From an uncultured Planctomycetaceae bacterium (GTDB taxonomy: Bacteria; Planctomycetota; Planctomycetia; Gemmatales; Gemmataceae), in assembly GCA_937888715.1 (NCBI GenBank), contig CALARU010000173.1, positions 1 to 39,878 on the forward strand: a stretch of DNA of 39,878 bases, in the 5' to 3' direction. The notes beneath the pieces were generated by a model, which searched no databases, had not been told where the DNA came from, and was given only the letters and a program-made list of their open reading frames with translations. Every line of letters begins with the position of its first letter. Position 1 is the stretch's first letter. Both the position numbers and the translations under genes were made by a program. This document shows, in pieces, positions 516 to 5,815 of this stretch.

Positions 516-563
516 TAGAAAACACAAATGCAACAGAATAAAACTCACAATTTGAGGTAAGAA

Positions 564-1814
564 ATGCGATTAAATATTACCTTGTGCCTAGGATTAACTT
601 TTGGATTAGCCTACAGTCCTGCCTCTGAGCCGATTAAACCTGAGCAATTTAATAAACTTCATTCAATCATCAAACCGAATTCAGATGAAGAAAAATTTAT
701 GCAGATCCCCTGGATGATTGATCTCTGGGAAGCGCGCAAAAAAGCTGCTTCTGAGGATAGACCAATCTTGCTCTGGGAGATGGATGGCCACCCGCTTGGC
801 TGCGTCTGAAACAACGGAGTTGTGGGCCGTGAGCTCACTTTTGCAGATGCGAAAATCATTGAAATTGTAAACAAGAATTTTGTACCCGTCGCAATGGACG
901 ATTGGTTTCAGCGTCGTAGGCAGGATGCCGAGGGAGACTTCTTTCGTAAGGTTGCCGATCAAGGACCACGCAAGGGGCAAGGGGGCGGCACCCGCCAAGG
1001 AATTTACGCATTTACTGCAGATGGCAAACTTTTACAGTATCGCAACAGCCAAGACCCTGAAGTTATGCGTGCGTTTTTACTAAGTGCCCTAAAATCATGG
1101 GGAAACCTATCACAAGCAGATCGTAATGCAGCAAAGGTTGGCGTTCCTGAATTGAAAAAGATCGATCCGCGGTATGTGCCGACTCTGACTAAAAATACCC
1201 TAATAGTAAATGTTCATGCCCGCATTCTGGAAAAGGAAAACGATTCTTTCTGCCATGGCACTTGCAAATTTCCGGGTGGCCAAAGGGCATCTCATGACCA
1301 TATGTGGATCCGTGAATCCGAATGGCAGGGATTGCTTCCCAAAGATCCCAAGGTAGGCCAAGAGATTGAAATTCCGGAGAATCTGGTTTATCGTCTTTCT
1401 CGTTTTCACTTAATCGACAATACACGGGGTGAACCTCCGATGTGGGCACGCAACGAAGTGCGTAAAGCTGCACTAAAACTTGTTGTTTCAGATATAACTA
1501 AAGACGAAGTACGCTTAAAATTAACAGGTGCTATTTTGCTTGCAACGGATGCAGATGAAAAAAATGCAAAACGGGGCTACGATGCATCGATGCTAGGGGA
1601 AATCTGCTACGAACCTTCCAAAAGAAAGATCATTAAGTTTAATGCTATCGTAATGGGCGAGCATTGGGGAGAAGGAACATACACAGGAGGTTCGCGCCCC
1701 GGGCGTTCGCCTTTCGGAATTGCTTTTGAGTTAGCAGATCCTGCGAAACCAGCAGACCGCGTACCGCCGCAGGCAATTCGTGAATTTGCAGGATACTACG
1801 AAGCGAGTAAATAA
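564..1814 (+). CDS. Secreted thioredoxin-like protein with in-frame UGA, probable selenoprotein (Sec82)
   Basis: I read one 416-residue protein through the in-frame TGA at 807-809. Both halves share a frame, and the second half has no convincing start of its own. Residues 1-20 form a signal peptide. Residues 65-115 resemble a thioredoxin-type strand-redox loop-helix-strand unit: PILLWEMDG, then GCV-U-NNG, then a helix, then IVNKNFVPVAMD. The UGA falls one residue after Cys80, giving a C-x-U pair where DUF255/thioredoxin_7-type proteins have their redox cysteines. A hairpin fitting bacterial SECIS rules follows at 822-838. The C-terminal 200 residues, which contain a CHGTC motif, match no family I recognise. 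The start ATG has GAGGT seven bases upstream. Likely role: periplasmic thiol/selenol redox enzyme (inference). Alternatives are a nonsense mutation, or two separate products with reinitiation at GTG 822. No selA/B/C/D genes are in the window. Confidence 0.72.
822..838 (+). promoter_or_regulatory. Candidate bacterial SECIS hairpin inside the coding region
   Basis: GUGGGC pairs with GCUCAC (six pairs, one G-U) around the five-base loop CGUGA. The stem starts 12 bases after the UGA, and the loop lies about 19-23 bases after it. A G within the first two loop bases and a loop 16-37 bases from the UGA are published features of bacterial SECIS elements. The fit is by eye; no folding energy was computed. 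Confidence 0.6.
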
Positions 1815-1833: not shown

Positions 1834-3093
1834 TTAAACATTAAAATCAAGCCCTTTAAGGGTGCCCGTGCTGGATCCAAATTTATCCGCATTGATTCCA
1901 GTGCGTTGCAACATACTGACATAAAGATTAGATAAAGGCGGTGGATTAGCAGGATCAAAAGCCAGATGCTGGCCATGCTTGAATCCGCCACCCGCAAGAA
2001 TAATAGGCAGATTTTTAGTCGAGTGATTGCTAGCATTACCAAGGTTACTGCTAAAAAACACTGAAGTGCGATCAAGCAAATTCGAATCCTGCTCCTTAGT
2101 TTCCTTAAGTTTTGCAAGGAACGCTGAGAAGGTTTTCATCTTTTCAATTTCAACAGTTTTAAGTTGAGCAATTTTTAAGGGATCTTGACCATGGTGCGAA
2201 AGATCGTGATGCCCCAAACTAACCCCAGGAATCGGCGGGACCAAACTGGTTCCCAAAAGAAGCATGGTAATCAATCGGGATGAATCAGTCTGCAAGGCAA
2301 GATGGGTCAGATCAAACATCAACCTGGCTTTGCCCGCTACATCTGCACCATTCGCAATATTTACTGGTTGTTTTGCTTCAACTTTGGGTTTTGGTTTCCG
2401 AGACCATTCTTCAGCAACGGCAAGGTTTTTCTCTAACTCTCGAACACTAGTGAAATATTCATCCAACTTAGACTTATCAAGCTTACCCAATACGGGCGTT
2501 ATTGCTTTTGCTTGTTCCGAAACTGAATCAAGAATACTTCGTCCATCGCGAAGCCTTTGAATTTGCGACTGAACCTCGTCCGGCCTACCTTCAAGGAAAA
2601 GCCTCGCAAAAACACTGGAAGGAAAACTATCGGAAGGCACGATGGCACCACTGCGTGTCCAAGATAGGCTGAAACCCTCGCAGGAAAGCGCGAGGCTAGG
2701 AAAGCGGGTTTTCCCACCAATAAATGAAGCAGCATATTGATCGAGAGAAATGGAATTACGAAAACCAGCCCTATGCTCTGGGTGGGGTGCTGCAGTAAGG
2801 AAACTATAAATGGAATCATGGCTGGAACCAACATCAGGGTGTGAAAGCCCAGAAACCACAGTGAAATCATCTTTGAAAGGAGCCAAGGTTTCAAGATAAG
2901 GCGAAGGAGTGTAATTTTTGCCCGCTTCCTTGGGAAAGAAGTTAGCAGGATGCAAGCTTAACGGAGTGCAAATGCAAACCATACGCCTTGGAATACCCGC
3001 TGCTGAGTTTTGAGCAAAAGCTTCAAGCCAAGGTAAAGCCAGAGTGACGCCCGTAGCTTTTAGGAAATTCCTGCGCGTTGCTTTAGGGTTCAT
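1834..3093 (-). CDS. DUF1552 family secreted protein
   Basis: This 419-residue protein begins with a twin-arginine-like leader (ATRRNFLKATG, then a hydrophobic stretch ending in PWLEAFAQ), typical of DUF1552 proteins exported by the Tat route. I chose the ATG at 3091-3093 because the family starts with the MNPKATRR segment and the longer open frame runs into the upstream gene. It sits 16 bases downstream of the DUF1592 gene on the same strand, so the two are almost certainly co-transcribed. This pairing recurs throughout planctomycetes. Family function is not established; association with cytochrome-like PSD1/DUF1592 proteins suggests an extracytoplasmic redox or polymer-related role, but that is inference. 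The stop lies 19 bases from the stop of the converging thioredoxin-like gene. Confidence 0.9.
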   Translation of the reverse strand: MNPKATRRNFLKATGVTLALPWLEAFAQNSAAGIPRRMVCICTPLSLHPANFFPKEAGKNYTPSPYLETLAPFKDDFTVVSGLSHPDVGSSHDSIYSFLTAAPHPEHRAGFRNSISLDQYAASFIGGKTRFPSLALSCEGFSLSWTRSGAIVPSDSFPSSVFARLFLEGRPDEVQSQIQRLRDGRSILDSVSEQAKAITPVLGKLDKSKLDEYFTSVRELEKNLAVAEEWSRKPKPKVEAKQPVNIANGADVAGKARLMFDLTHLALQTDSSRLITMLLLGTSLVPPIPGVSLGHHDLSHHGQDPLKIAQLKTVEIEKMKTFSAFLAKLKETKEQDSNLLDRTSVFFSSNLGNASNHSTKNLPIILAGGGFKHGQHLAFDPANPPPLSNLYVSMLQRTGINADKFGSSTGTLKGLDFNV

Positions 3094-3109
3094 GTATTTA
3101 ATTCCTTGG

Positions 3110-5503
3110 CTATTTATTGAGAAAGAAATCACTTGAAGTAATTTCATGGACCAGTGATTTAAAACCATAGTTATTCGCGCGAATCTTCGCAACTATCGCT
3201 TCGATGCCTGGTTGATCCGTTGGTTGCGGAGTTGAACCCGTGGCATAAATAATCAGCCGTTCGGTAAGGGATCGCGCTATTTGATCCTTATCGGTAAGAA
3301 GCAAGGTCTTTAATTCGTCAATGTCTTTAAAAGCGCGCCCATCTGACAGAACATCAGCGGGATCGATTTTTCGCCCCTTACGGAAGTTCGCAGGTCGCCC
3401 ATCAAGAACATAATGCTCACGCCAACCGCCTATTACATCAAAACTTTCCAAGGCAAAACCTGGAGGATCGATTTTGGAATGGCATGAAGCGCAAGATTCA
3501 ATGGATCTGTGCTTGGCAAGTTGTTCTCTTATTGTAATTGCACCACGAATGTCTGGTTCAACTGCCGCAATGCCTTCGGGTGGCCTTGGCGGCGGGGTTC
3601 CTAAAATGCGCTCAAGGACCCAAGTCCCACGAAGAATCGGAGAGGTATAGGTTCCATTTGCAGTAACTTTTAAAACGCTTGCCATGGTTAACAAACCACC
3701 CCGATGGCTATCTTTAGGAAGCATTACTTTGCGAAATTCCCAACCGTTTACATCAGGGATATTGTAATGCTTTGCGAGCCGACCATTGAGCATTGTGAAA
3801 TCTGAAGCCACAAAATTAGTGATGCTTAAATTGTTTTTTAAAACCTCATCAAAGAAGAGATAGGTTTCGCGAAGCATGGAAGCTTTAAGCATATCATCGT
3901 AATGGGGATAAATGATACTGCTTGGAATAGTAGCATCAATTTCACGAAGGTTAAGCCATTGCCCTGCAAAGTTTTCAGTAAATGAAGAAGCTTTGGGGCT
4001 ATTAAGCATGCGTTCAACTTGATCATAAAGGATTTTCGGATCGCTCAACTTTTTCTGTTCTGCAAGACCGAAAAGTTCATCATCAGGCATGGTGCTCCAG
4101 AGAAAATACGACAACCTGCTGGCGATTGCGAAGTCGTCAAGTTTGCCTGGCTTTTCTAGAAGAAAGAGAAAATCTTTAGAAACCATGATCGCCATGAGTC
4201 CAACACGAACCGCTTGTTCGAATGAATATTTATCTGCAAGGCGTGCTTTTACAAGAGCAAGATAGGGCGCAATGTCATCAGCGGAAACTGATCTACGAAA
4301 AGCTCTGCGAGCAAAACTGCGAAGAATCTTACCCGCATCAGATTCAGGGTCGGTGGAAGTAACCTCAACCCGTTTACTGTAATTGTAAATAGGAGCGGTT
4401 TTAGTGGGAAGATCGCCAAAGATTCGGCGATGACTAGGGGGAGGCCAGGATTCGTAAAGAGGGCCTTCAACCTCAACCCACTGAACAGCTAAACCAGGGC
4501 CTTCATAAGAATCTGCACCAATTTTGTGAACCGCTTGGGCGCTTGCCAAACCATAAGGAAGAATTCGTATCGTTGCGCGAGGTTCGAGTTCTTGAGTGAA
4601 TTCCAGAACGGTGGGTTTATCCGCAGGTGCATCAAAATAACCAACAAGATTGTTTTTCCCTGTCATCCCCATCACCCCCGCATCAATGCGATATACAACA
4701 GGTTTACTCTGGCTTTGAAACCCAGATACAGAAATGCGAAATTTATACTTACCTCGGTCAGGTGGATAGAAAGAAGACAAACCAACCGCTTGCCAAGCGG
4801 AGGAGGAAAAGCAAATTACGGTTCCATCATCTTGATGCCGAAAGACTTTCTCCGTGGTAGCTTTGACAGAGTGCATATCCTTAAGACTGTATTGTTTTTT
4901 AATAAGAGGCGGTTGGGGCAGATTGGCGATTGCTGTTTTCAGCCCTTTATCTGCACCTTCCAAATATTTATCCATCAAAAAAGATGATGTATGCAAGGCT
5001 TCACCAATGTTATCGAACCCATTGGAAGAACTATCTTGAGGCAATAATCCTCTTAATTCAACCGGAACACCCAAAAGATCACGCATGGTGTTTTCATATT
5101 CAATGTTGTTAAGCCTGCGTAAAACGACCCTACCTTCTTTTAATCGCTGAACATCGGCAAGCTTGGTGCTGGAGTTAATCCAATCAAAAACTGAAAGCAA
5201 TTCTTTTTCTGTCGGCTTGGTTTTTTCTTTTGGAGGCATCTCGCCTGATTTCATTTTTTTAAACACCAATTGCCAGGCATCTCGATTGGATCGATCCTCG
5301 AAATTTGAAGTAAGCTGATCAAGCTTAAAATTCCCTCTGGGCTTTTCAGAGGACTGCGAATGGCAGGAATAACAATGTGTTTTAAGCGCAACTAAAGCTT
5401 TCTCGTCGATTAAAGGTAGCGATGTTAAAACAGGTTCCTCTGCTCGTAATAATCCAGAAACAACAAAAAGAAGCAAAGCAAAAGGAACGATCTTTACGCA
5501 CAT
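3110..5503 (-). CDS. Planctomycete cytochrome-like DUF1587/1592/1588/1585 protein
   Basis: A 797-residue secreted protein. After a signal peptide (residues 1-20) comes a PSD1-type cytochrome c motif, CYSCH (residues 44-48). Then follow blocks typical of DUF1587 (RRLNNIEYENTMRDLLGV), DUF1595/1592 (RLSYFLWSTMPDDELF, FAGQWLNLR), DUF1588 (HRGGLLTMASVL, then ILGTPPPRPP) and DUF1585 at the end (LTERLIIYATG). A second CASCH motif lies in the DUF1588 part (IESCASCHSKIDPPG), so two c-type haem sites are possible. I chose ATG 5501-5503 because it gives a clean signal peptide; a GTG at 5575 and ATGs at 5525-5530 extend the frame. It heads an operon with the DUF1552 gene. The exact substrate of this planctomycete-enriched family is unknown to me. 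Confidence 0.9.
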   Translation of the reverse strand: MCVKIVPFALLLFVVSGLLRAEEPVLTSLPLIDEKALVALKTHCYSCHSQSSEKPRGNFKLDQLTSNFEDRSNRDAWQLVFKKMKSGEMPPKEKTKPTEKELLSVFDWINSSTKLADVQRLKEGRVVLRRLNNIEYENTMRDLLGVPVELRGLLPQDSSSNGFDNIGEALHTSSFLMDKYLEGADKGLKTAIANLPQPPLIKKQYSLKDMHSVKATTEKVFRHQDDGTVICFSSSAWQAVGLSSFYPPDRGKYKFRISVSGFQSQSKPVVYRIDAGVMGMTGKNNLVGYFDAPADKPTVLEFTQELEPRATIRILPYGLASAQAVHKIGADSYEGPGLAVQWVEVEGPLYESWPPPSHRRIFGDLPTKTAPIYNYSKRVEVTSTDPESDAGKILRSFARRAFRRSVSADDIAPYLALVKARLADKYSFEQAVRVGLMAIMVSKDFLFLLEKPGKLDDFAIASRLSYFLWSTMPDDELFGLAEQKKLSDPKILYDQVERMLNSPKASSFTENFAGQWLNLREIDATIPSSIIYPHYDDMLKASMLRETYLFFDEVLKNNLSITNFVASDFTMLNGRLAKHYNIPDVNGWEFRKVMLPKDSHRGGLLTMASVLKVTANGTYTSPILRGTWVLERILGTPPPRPPEGIAAVEPDIRGAITIREQLAKHRSIESCASCHSKIDPPGFALESFDVIGGWREHYVLDGRPANFRKGRKIDPADVLSDGRAFKDIDELKTLLLTDKDQIARSLTERLIIYATGSTPQPTDQPGIEAIVAKIRANNYGFKSLVHEITSSDFFLNK

Positions 5504-5815
5504 AAAAAATCCGTCCGGGGACATCATAATGGCCATTGCCAAAAACAACATCAAAAAGGTGGGACTGATCAACACCGAAACTTATTTAACAAACATAATT
5601 ATCGCTTATAAAAAGACTTGCTGCAAGCCCCAGACCTCGAATTCGCCTAACCCAAACCACATATTCTTTCTAACGTCCAAGGTCGAAAATCAAACGAGCA
5701 ATACGATTCACCCCCATCATTAAAAAATCAAAAAGATTGCGAAACTAAAACCCTATAAATGGGTTAAATTATAAATAGCCCGATGTTTATTTCCTTCATC
5801 CCAAAGAGGTGATCC
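5504..5815. other. Divergent intergenic region
   Basis: About 310 bases between the DUF1592 operon (minus) and the small secreted gene at 5816 (plus). It is AT-rich with several TATAAA-like words (5754-5759, 5770-5775) but no well-spaced -35/-10 pair. A short hairpin, AACCC/GGGTT around TATAAAT, lies just before the plus-strand gene. No gene, tRNA or longer repeat is seen. Confidence 0.5.

What the first reader, a model, noticed from the sequence alone, without database searches (positions are those of the whole stretch)
564..1814. Probable undescribed thioredoxin-like selenoprotein with a C-x-U motif
One in-frame UGA (807-809) interrupts an otherwise continuous 416-codon frame. The residues around it (strand, GCV-U-NNG, helix, strand) look like the active site of a thioredoxin-type fold, so the UGA sits exactly where a redox Cys would be expected. 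Upstream and downstream parts only make one sensible domain when joined. The protein is exported and has a long C-terminal domain of unknown family. This would be a selenocysteine enzyme in the periplasm of a planctomycete.
Basis: partly seen in the sequence, partly recalled or inferred. Interest (0 to 1): 0.85.

Follow-up and report, generated by a model that had tools for sequence, protein, structure and literature searches.

The report
New exported selenocysteine redox protein family
A bacterial gene that looks broken by a stop codon almost certainly makes an exported redox enzyme with the rare amino acid selenocysteine at its active site, and it belongs to a large family, found in planctomycetes and their relatives, that we could not find in the catalogues searched.

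Summary
Window 564-1814 is one continuous 416-codon frame interrupted only by TGA at 807-809 (residue 82). The selenoprotein reading is strongly supported. The genome has selA, selB, selD and a tRNA-Sec with anticodon UCA. Of 145 distinct homologous sites, 132 have TGA at the aligned column, 1 has Cys (TGC, a Gemmatimonadaceae MAG) and 12 have Ser, Asp, Arg or Pro. A hairpin right after the UGA meets the published bacterial SECIS model and shows compensatory changes. The Arg codon in its loop is never CGC in 108 Sec genes, although CGC is 45% of Arg codons elsewhere in those genes. An AlphaFold2 model (pLDDT 93) shows a DsbD-gamma/DsbH/ERp18-like thioredoxin domain plus a C-terminal beta-barrel of no clear known fold. 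U82 aligns with the first, nucleophilic Cys of CxxC. The second Cys is lost, and a Cys sits at U-2 (or U-1 in paralogues). No NCBIfam or Pfam model reaches its cut-off on this protein, and a 2026 table of 119 prokaryotic selenoprotein families lists no evident match. Most likely it is an exported selenol-disulfide oxidoreductase of a new selenoprotein family that almost never appears as a Cys form. Substrate and function are untested.

The parts
554..557 (+). Shine-Dalgarno-like GAGG, 6 nt before the start codon
   Evidence: sequence
564..1814 (+). selenoprotein gene, 416 residues with U82 plus TAA stop; annotation pipelines would see a short fragment or the 330-aa GTG ORF 822-1814
   Evidence: dN/dS on both sides of the UGA
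564..623 (+). probable N-terminal export signal (about residues 1-20: basic start, hydrophobic core, small residues)
   Evidence: sequence; low-confidence segment of the model; no signal-peptide program was run
690..1118 (+). thioredoxin-like domain, residues 43-185
   Evidence: AlphaFold2 model; 3f9u Z 13.6, ERp18 12.2, DsbH 11.2, DsbD-gamma 10.0
801..803 (+). Cys80, candidate partner of Sec (C-x-U)
   Evidence: Cys at U-2 in 108 and at U-1 in 20 of 132 Sec sites
807..809 (+). in-frame UGA = Sec82, at the N-cap of helix 83-90, aligned with the first Cys of CxxC
822..838 (+). bacterial SECIS hairpin: 6-bp stem 822-827 with 833-838, apical loop CGUGA 828-832 (invariant G at 829, followed by U), loop starts 18 nt after the UGA
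   Evidence: covariation counts; consensus fold; published bSECIS constraints
1185..1745 (+). C-terminal antiparallel beta-barrel domain, residues 208-394, no clear known fold
   Evidence: AlphaFold2 model of the domain alone, pLDDT 94.7; best Z 6.5

Best explanation
The gene encodes an exported selenoprotein. SelB-Sec-tRNA reads UGA 807-809 as selenocysteine, directed by the hairpin at 822-838. The protein is a DsbD-gamma/DsbH-type thioredoxin domain followed by a beta-barrel domain. Sec82 sits at the position of the attacking Cys of CxxC. The usual resolving Cys is a glycine, and Cys80 (C-x-U) most likely closes a short selenenylsulfide with Sec82 after it attacks its substrate. Another reductant would then recycle it. 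The barrel domain probably presents or binds the substrate. Shown by computation: conserved UGA, SECIS, sel machinery, fold, position of U. Inferred: export, the selenenylsulfide chemistry, a redox (disulfide or peroxide-type) reaction outside the cytoplasm, and the role of the barrel.
For: Own genome: selA (455 bits), selB next to it (405.5 bits), selD (349.7 bits, itself with one TGA) and tRNA-Sec (68.8 bits, anticodon TCA). U in 132 of 145 distinct sites, one Cys homologue. Of 86 sampled planctomycete genomes with a strong UGA-form, 83 have a strong selA match, against 239 of 392 genomes overall with selA over the cut-off (Fisher P about 2e-17, my tally). Hairpin: 88% of cells paired against 36-45% when slid, covariation score 0.55 against 0.32 shuffled, 5 of 6 pairs with two-sided changes. 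Arg codon in the loop CGC 0 of 108 against 45% elsewhere; Sec-less homologues use CGC at 9 of 11 Arg sites. Fold and U position.
Against: No biochemical evidence. Three of 86 genomes with the UGA form lack a full selA match (one is 67% complete, one has only a weak match of 2.6e-20). The partner Cys is absent within 8 residues upstream in 2 of 132 sites (L077, L079), so the C-x-U chemistry is not universal. Neighbouring genes are not conserved, so no pathway is indicated. Export is read from sequence only.
Confidence: 0.9

Rival explanations
1. The UGA is a genuine stop or a recent frame-disrupting mutation (pseudogene or assembly error), and the downstream part is a relic or a separate gene.
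For: Only that UGA also terminates genes here and that a 330-aa GTG ORF exists downstream.
Against: Same TGA codon in 132 of 145 distinct sites from many assemblies and two main phyla; purifying selection on both sides; one structural domain spans the site.
Confidence: 0.01
2. UGA is read as another amino acid (Trp by near-cognate readthrough or code change) or the gene makes two products by partial readthrough.
For: UGA readthrough by Trp-tRNA is known in bacteria in general (own knowledge).
Against: No homologue has Trp at this column; the replacements seen are Cys, Ser, Asp, Arg and Pro. Presence tracks selA, and a covarying bSECIS with loop-codon constraint follows. Other genes end in TGA.
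Confidence: 0.02
3. It is a selenoprotein, but the domain is a selenium- or metal-binding or sensing module, not a catalytic oxidoreductase.
For: The second Cys of CxxC is lost in all members, sites without any nearby Cys exist, and Sec-less paralogues carry Ser or Asp instead of Cys, which suggests that the site can be dispensed with or works without a second thiol.
Against: Sec sits exactly on the nucleophile position of a DsbH/DsbD-gamma fold; 128 of 132 Sec sites keep a Cys at U-2 or U-1.
Confidence: 0.2
4. It is a distant branch of an already catalogued family (Trx7/PDZ NF041199 or VPGUxxT NF041382/NF041383).
For: Weak similarity of the Trx region to these models in some members (best E 5.5e-4 for VPGUxxT type 2; 16.3 bits for NF041199 on a paralogue).
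Against: The window protein itself matches none of them even at E 10; paralogue scores of about 11-17 bits against cut-offs of 275-350; different motif and C-terminal domain.
Confidence: 0.1

Closest known systems
DsbD C-terminal domain / DsbH / ERp18-AGR thioredoxin-like domains (3f9u, 2fwf, 2ju5, 1sen)
   Same: Fold and position of the nucleophile at the helix N-cap: Z 13.6 over 121 residues, rmsd 2.6 (3f9u); 10.0 to 12.2 for the others
   Different: CxxC replaced by U-x-x-G with the Cys moved to U-2; C-terminal barrel; Sec
NCBIfam NF041199 Trx7/PDZ domain-containing (seleno)protein
   Same: Thioredoxin_7-like domain with Sec; weak match of a paralogue
   Different: Motif CxxU in the published table (PMC13188914); PDZ domain; this protein does not match the model
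NCBIfam NF041382/NF041383 VPGUxxT thioredoxin-like (seleno)proteins
   Same: Sec in a thioredoxin-like domain; weak matches in up to 3 of 48 members
   Different: VPGUxxT motif, scores far below cut-off
CxU entries of the 2026 table: rhodanese form 3 (NF041203), UshA-like (NF041198), ferredoxin-thioredoxin reductase (NF041072), thioredoxin-like Sec.1 (PF13192)
   Same: C-x-U spacing (PMC13188914)
   Different: Different domains; none of these models is hit by this protein

Membership tests
bacterial selenoproteins | in-frame UGA conserved in homologues | tested here: met
   132 of 145 distinct sites
bacterial selenoproteins | bSECIS immediately downstream: loop 3-9 nt, stem 4-16 bp, G in the first two loop positions, 16-37 nt from UGA, MFE at most -7.5 (PMC13188914) | tested here: met
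   6 bp, loop CGUGA (G second), 18 nt, -8.6 kcal/mol for 44 nt; covariation
bacterial selenoproteins | selA, selB, selC, selD in the genome | tested here: met
bacterial selenoproteins | Cys homologues (Cys/Sec pair) | tested here: met
   only one found: L169, TGC, 33% identity, in a genome that has selA
bacterial selenoproteins | selenium found in the protein | not testable with these tools
   needs 75Se labelling or mass spectrometry
thioredoxin-fold oxidoreductases | thioredoxin fold with nucleophile at helix N-cap | tested here: met
thioredoxin-fold oxidoreductases | CxxC (or UxxC/CxxU) pair | tested here: not met
   U-x-x-G; residue U+3 is never Cys in 132 sites
NF041199 Trx7/PDZ | score over the curated cut-off of 300 bits | tested here: not met
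   no match of the window protein; 16.3 bits for a paralogue
NF041383 VPGUxxT type 2 | score over the curated cut-off of 275 bits | tested here: not met
   no match of the window protein; paralogues 11.6-17.4 bits
PF03190 Thioredox_DsbH | score over the gathering cut-off of 27 bits | tested here: not met
   16.6 bits

The most novel reading that the evidence does not exclude
A large exported selenoprotein family in which Sec is close to obligate. Sec replaces the nucleophile of CxxC, the resolving Cys is lost and moved to U-2 or U-1, and when Sec is given up the site becomes Ser, Asp, Arg or Pro rather than Cys, so the chemistry may need selenium itself.
Probability: 0.5. Interest if true: 0.75.

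Novelty: new variant of a known kind. Interest (0 to 1): 0.62.

Why it matters
It would add a multi-copy selenoprotein family, common in Planctomycetota and present in Verrucomicrobiota, that Cys/Sec-pair methods would tend to miss because Cys forms are almost absent (1 of 145 sites). At least four further family members with the UGA are in this one genome, and such genes are prone to truncated annotation. The family also offers a natural test of when selenium cannot be replaced by sulfur: Sec-less paralogues carry Ser, Asp, Arg or Pro, and one Cys form keeps a hairpin at the SECIS position.

Tried and rejected
Rfam search around the UGA found nothing meaningful, although the SECIS shows in the covariation test. 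Conserved gene neighbourhood: none beyond close relatives, so no operon-based function. Sequence profile against PDB sequences: no match. C-terminal domain: the best structural matches are OmpA, Ail, PagL and LmcA at Z 5-6.5, which is within the common-arrangement range and not used as evidence. The C-terminal PRC-barrel Pfam hit (E 0.17) was rejected as noise. The broad alignment A1 was too diverse for the DNA pattern scan, so the scan used the C-x-U subfamily A2; its sampling is biased to that motif, but one of its two patterns required a Cys codon at the Sec site and the scan still gave only one Cys homologue.

Full report
Observation. The frame 564-1814 (+) has ATG 564 behind a GAGG stretch, one TGA at 807-809 and TAA at 1812-1814. 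Codon changes against close relatives are mainly synonymous both before and after the TGA (dN/dS 0.08 and 0.09 against L099, 0.08 and 0.14 against L100). A standard ORF list shows only a 330-aa GTG ORF.

Distribution. The window's own genome (4.56 Mb, 99.6% complete) holds four further UGA-containing relatives: two in tandem on C242, one on C53 and one on C310. Full-length homologues with exactly one TGA occur in other members of the genus (95, 93 and 78% identical) and across the family and class. In a sample of 392 planctomycete-phylum genomes many carry strong full-length matches with one TGA. A scan of 85,000 species genomes with the C-x-U subfamily returned 79 loci, in Planctomycetota (including the isolate Limnoglobus roseus PX52) and Verrucomicrobiota (Akkermansiaceae, Roseibacillus and others). 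All scored copies have TGA except one, L169 from a Gemmatimonadaceae MAG, which has TGC. Pooled and made distinct, the column is TGA in 132, Ser in 7, Asp in 3, and Arg, Pro and Cys in 1 each.

Machinery. selA (C287), selB beside it, selD (C312, itself with an in-frame TGA) and a tRNA-Sec with anticodon TCA (C124) are present. Of 86 sampled genomes with a strong UGA-form, 83 have a strong selA match; overall 239 of 392 have selA over the cut-off (one-sided Fisher P about 2e-17, tallied). I transcribed this tally by hand from the two tables, and relatedness among genomes is not corrected for. In 20 genomes reached through, 16 have selA over the cut-off and two more have truncated matches (E 2e-72 and 2e-25, near contig ends); two lack it, one of which (L175, labelled Rhodobacteraceae) is probably a misbinned contig.

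SECIS. Counting the U of UGA as nt 1, nucleotides 16-21 pair with 27-32, with loop 22-26. In 74 diverse C-x-U genes 88.1% of cells pair, against 35.6-44.6% for slid registers and 75.4% for shuffles (0 of 500 reach it). The covariation score is 0.55 against 0.32, and 5 of 6 pairs show two-sided changes, for example C-G to U-A at 17-31 and G-C to C-G at 18-30. RNAalifold finds the same helix (five of the six pairs) on its own. G23 is invariant. The published bSECIS model (PMC13188914) asks for a 3-9 nt loop, 4-16 bp stem, G in the first two loop positions, 16-37 nt spacing and at most -7.5 kcal/mol; the window has 5 nt, 6 bp, G second, 18 nt and -8.6 kcal/mol for the 44-nt piece. The first three loop nucleotides are the codon of invariant Arg89. 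It is CGT 62, AGG 33, CGG 10, AGA 2, CGA 1 and CGC 0 of 108, while CGC is 45% of Arg codons further downstream in the same genes. Among Sec-less, non-Cys homologues 9 of 11 with Arg there use CGC. The Cys homologue L169 keeps CGT and a predicted hairpin there, as a recent Sec-to-Cys change would.

Fold and active site. AlphaFold2 with a 48-sequence alignment gives pLDDT 93.1, pTM 0.90. Residues 43-185 match DsbD-type, ERp18/AGR and DsbH domains (Z 13.6 to 10). U82 immediately precedes helix 83-90. Profile-profile alignment with Thioredoxin_7 proteins of the same genome (probability 96.6, E 4.8e-10) puts U82 on the first Cys of CxxC and Gly85 on the second. U+3 is never Cys in 132 Sec sites; Cys is at U-2 in 108, at U-1 in 20, elsewhere upstream in 2 and absent in 2. 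Residues 208-394 form an antiparallel beta-barrel with no clear solved relative (pLDDT 94.7, best Z 6.5).

Mechanism. Shown: UGA conservation, SECIS, machinery, fold, U position. Inferred: export (N-terminal sequence), nucleophilic selenol, selenenylsulfide with Cys80, recycling by another reductant, substrate handling by the barrel. The loss of the resolving Cys, and Ser/Asp/Arg/Pro instead of Cys in Sec-less copies, are unusual. The Sec-less copies may have lost redox activity and kept the barrel function.

Comparison. Pfam: DsbH 16.6 bits, below the cut-off of 27. NCBIfam release 20 (2026): no match for the window protein even at E 10, and only weak matches among 48 relatives and paralogues to VPGUxxT and Trx7/PDZ selenoprotein models. 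[quoted passage not shown] A 2016 study (PMC4807772) reports selenoproteins in two planctomycete genomes in a supplementary table that I could not read, so a member may appear there unnamed. I therefore call it a new variant of a known kind with that reservation.

Noticed in passing
G000:C312:74197-75126 (L042): selD of this genome is itself a candidate selenoprotein with one in-frame TGA.
   Followed up: no
G000:C242:9427-12320 (L002, L005): Two UGA-containing paralogues in tandem, with the motif G-x-C-U instead of G-C-x-U.
   Followed up: partly
L007 (G000:C310) and L035: Related Sec-containing Trx domains in longer or differently extended proteins; the L007 protein has a weak match (E 0.026) to a carbohydrate-binding domain (CBM_11).
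   Followed up: no
L027, L032, L028, L083-L090, L092: Sec-less paralogues with Asp, Ser, Arg or Pro at the Sec column, several in genomes that also hold Sec forms.
   Followed up: partly
L169: The single Cys homologue, in a Gemmatimonadaceae MAG that has selA, keeps a hairpin and CGT at the SECIS position, like a relict SECIS.
   Followed up: partly
L100, L175: Labels look wrong: L100 is named Candidatus Kuenenia stuttgartiensis but is 93% identical to the window protein; L175 is named Rhodobacteraceae, and no selA was found in that genome.
   Followed up: no
window 1834-5575 (-): DUF1552 protein and a planctomycete cytochrome / DUF1592-1585 protein, convergent with the gene; a related cytochrome protein also lies near the homologues in L099 and L101.
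   Followed up: no
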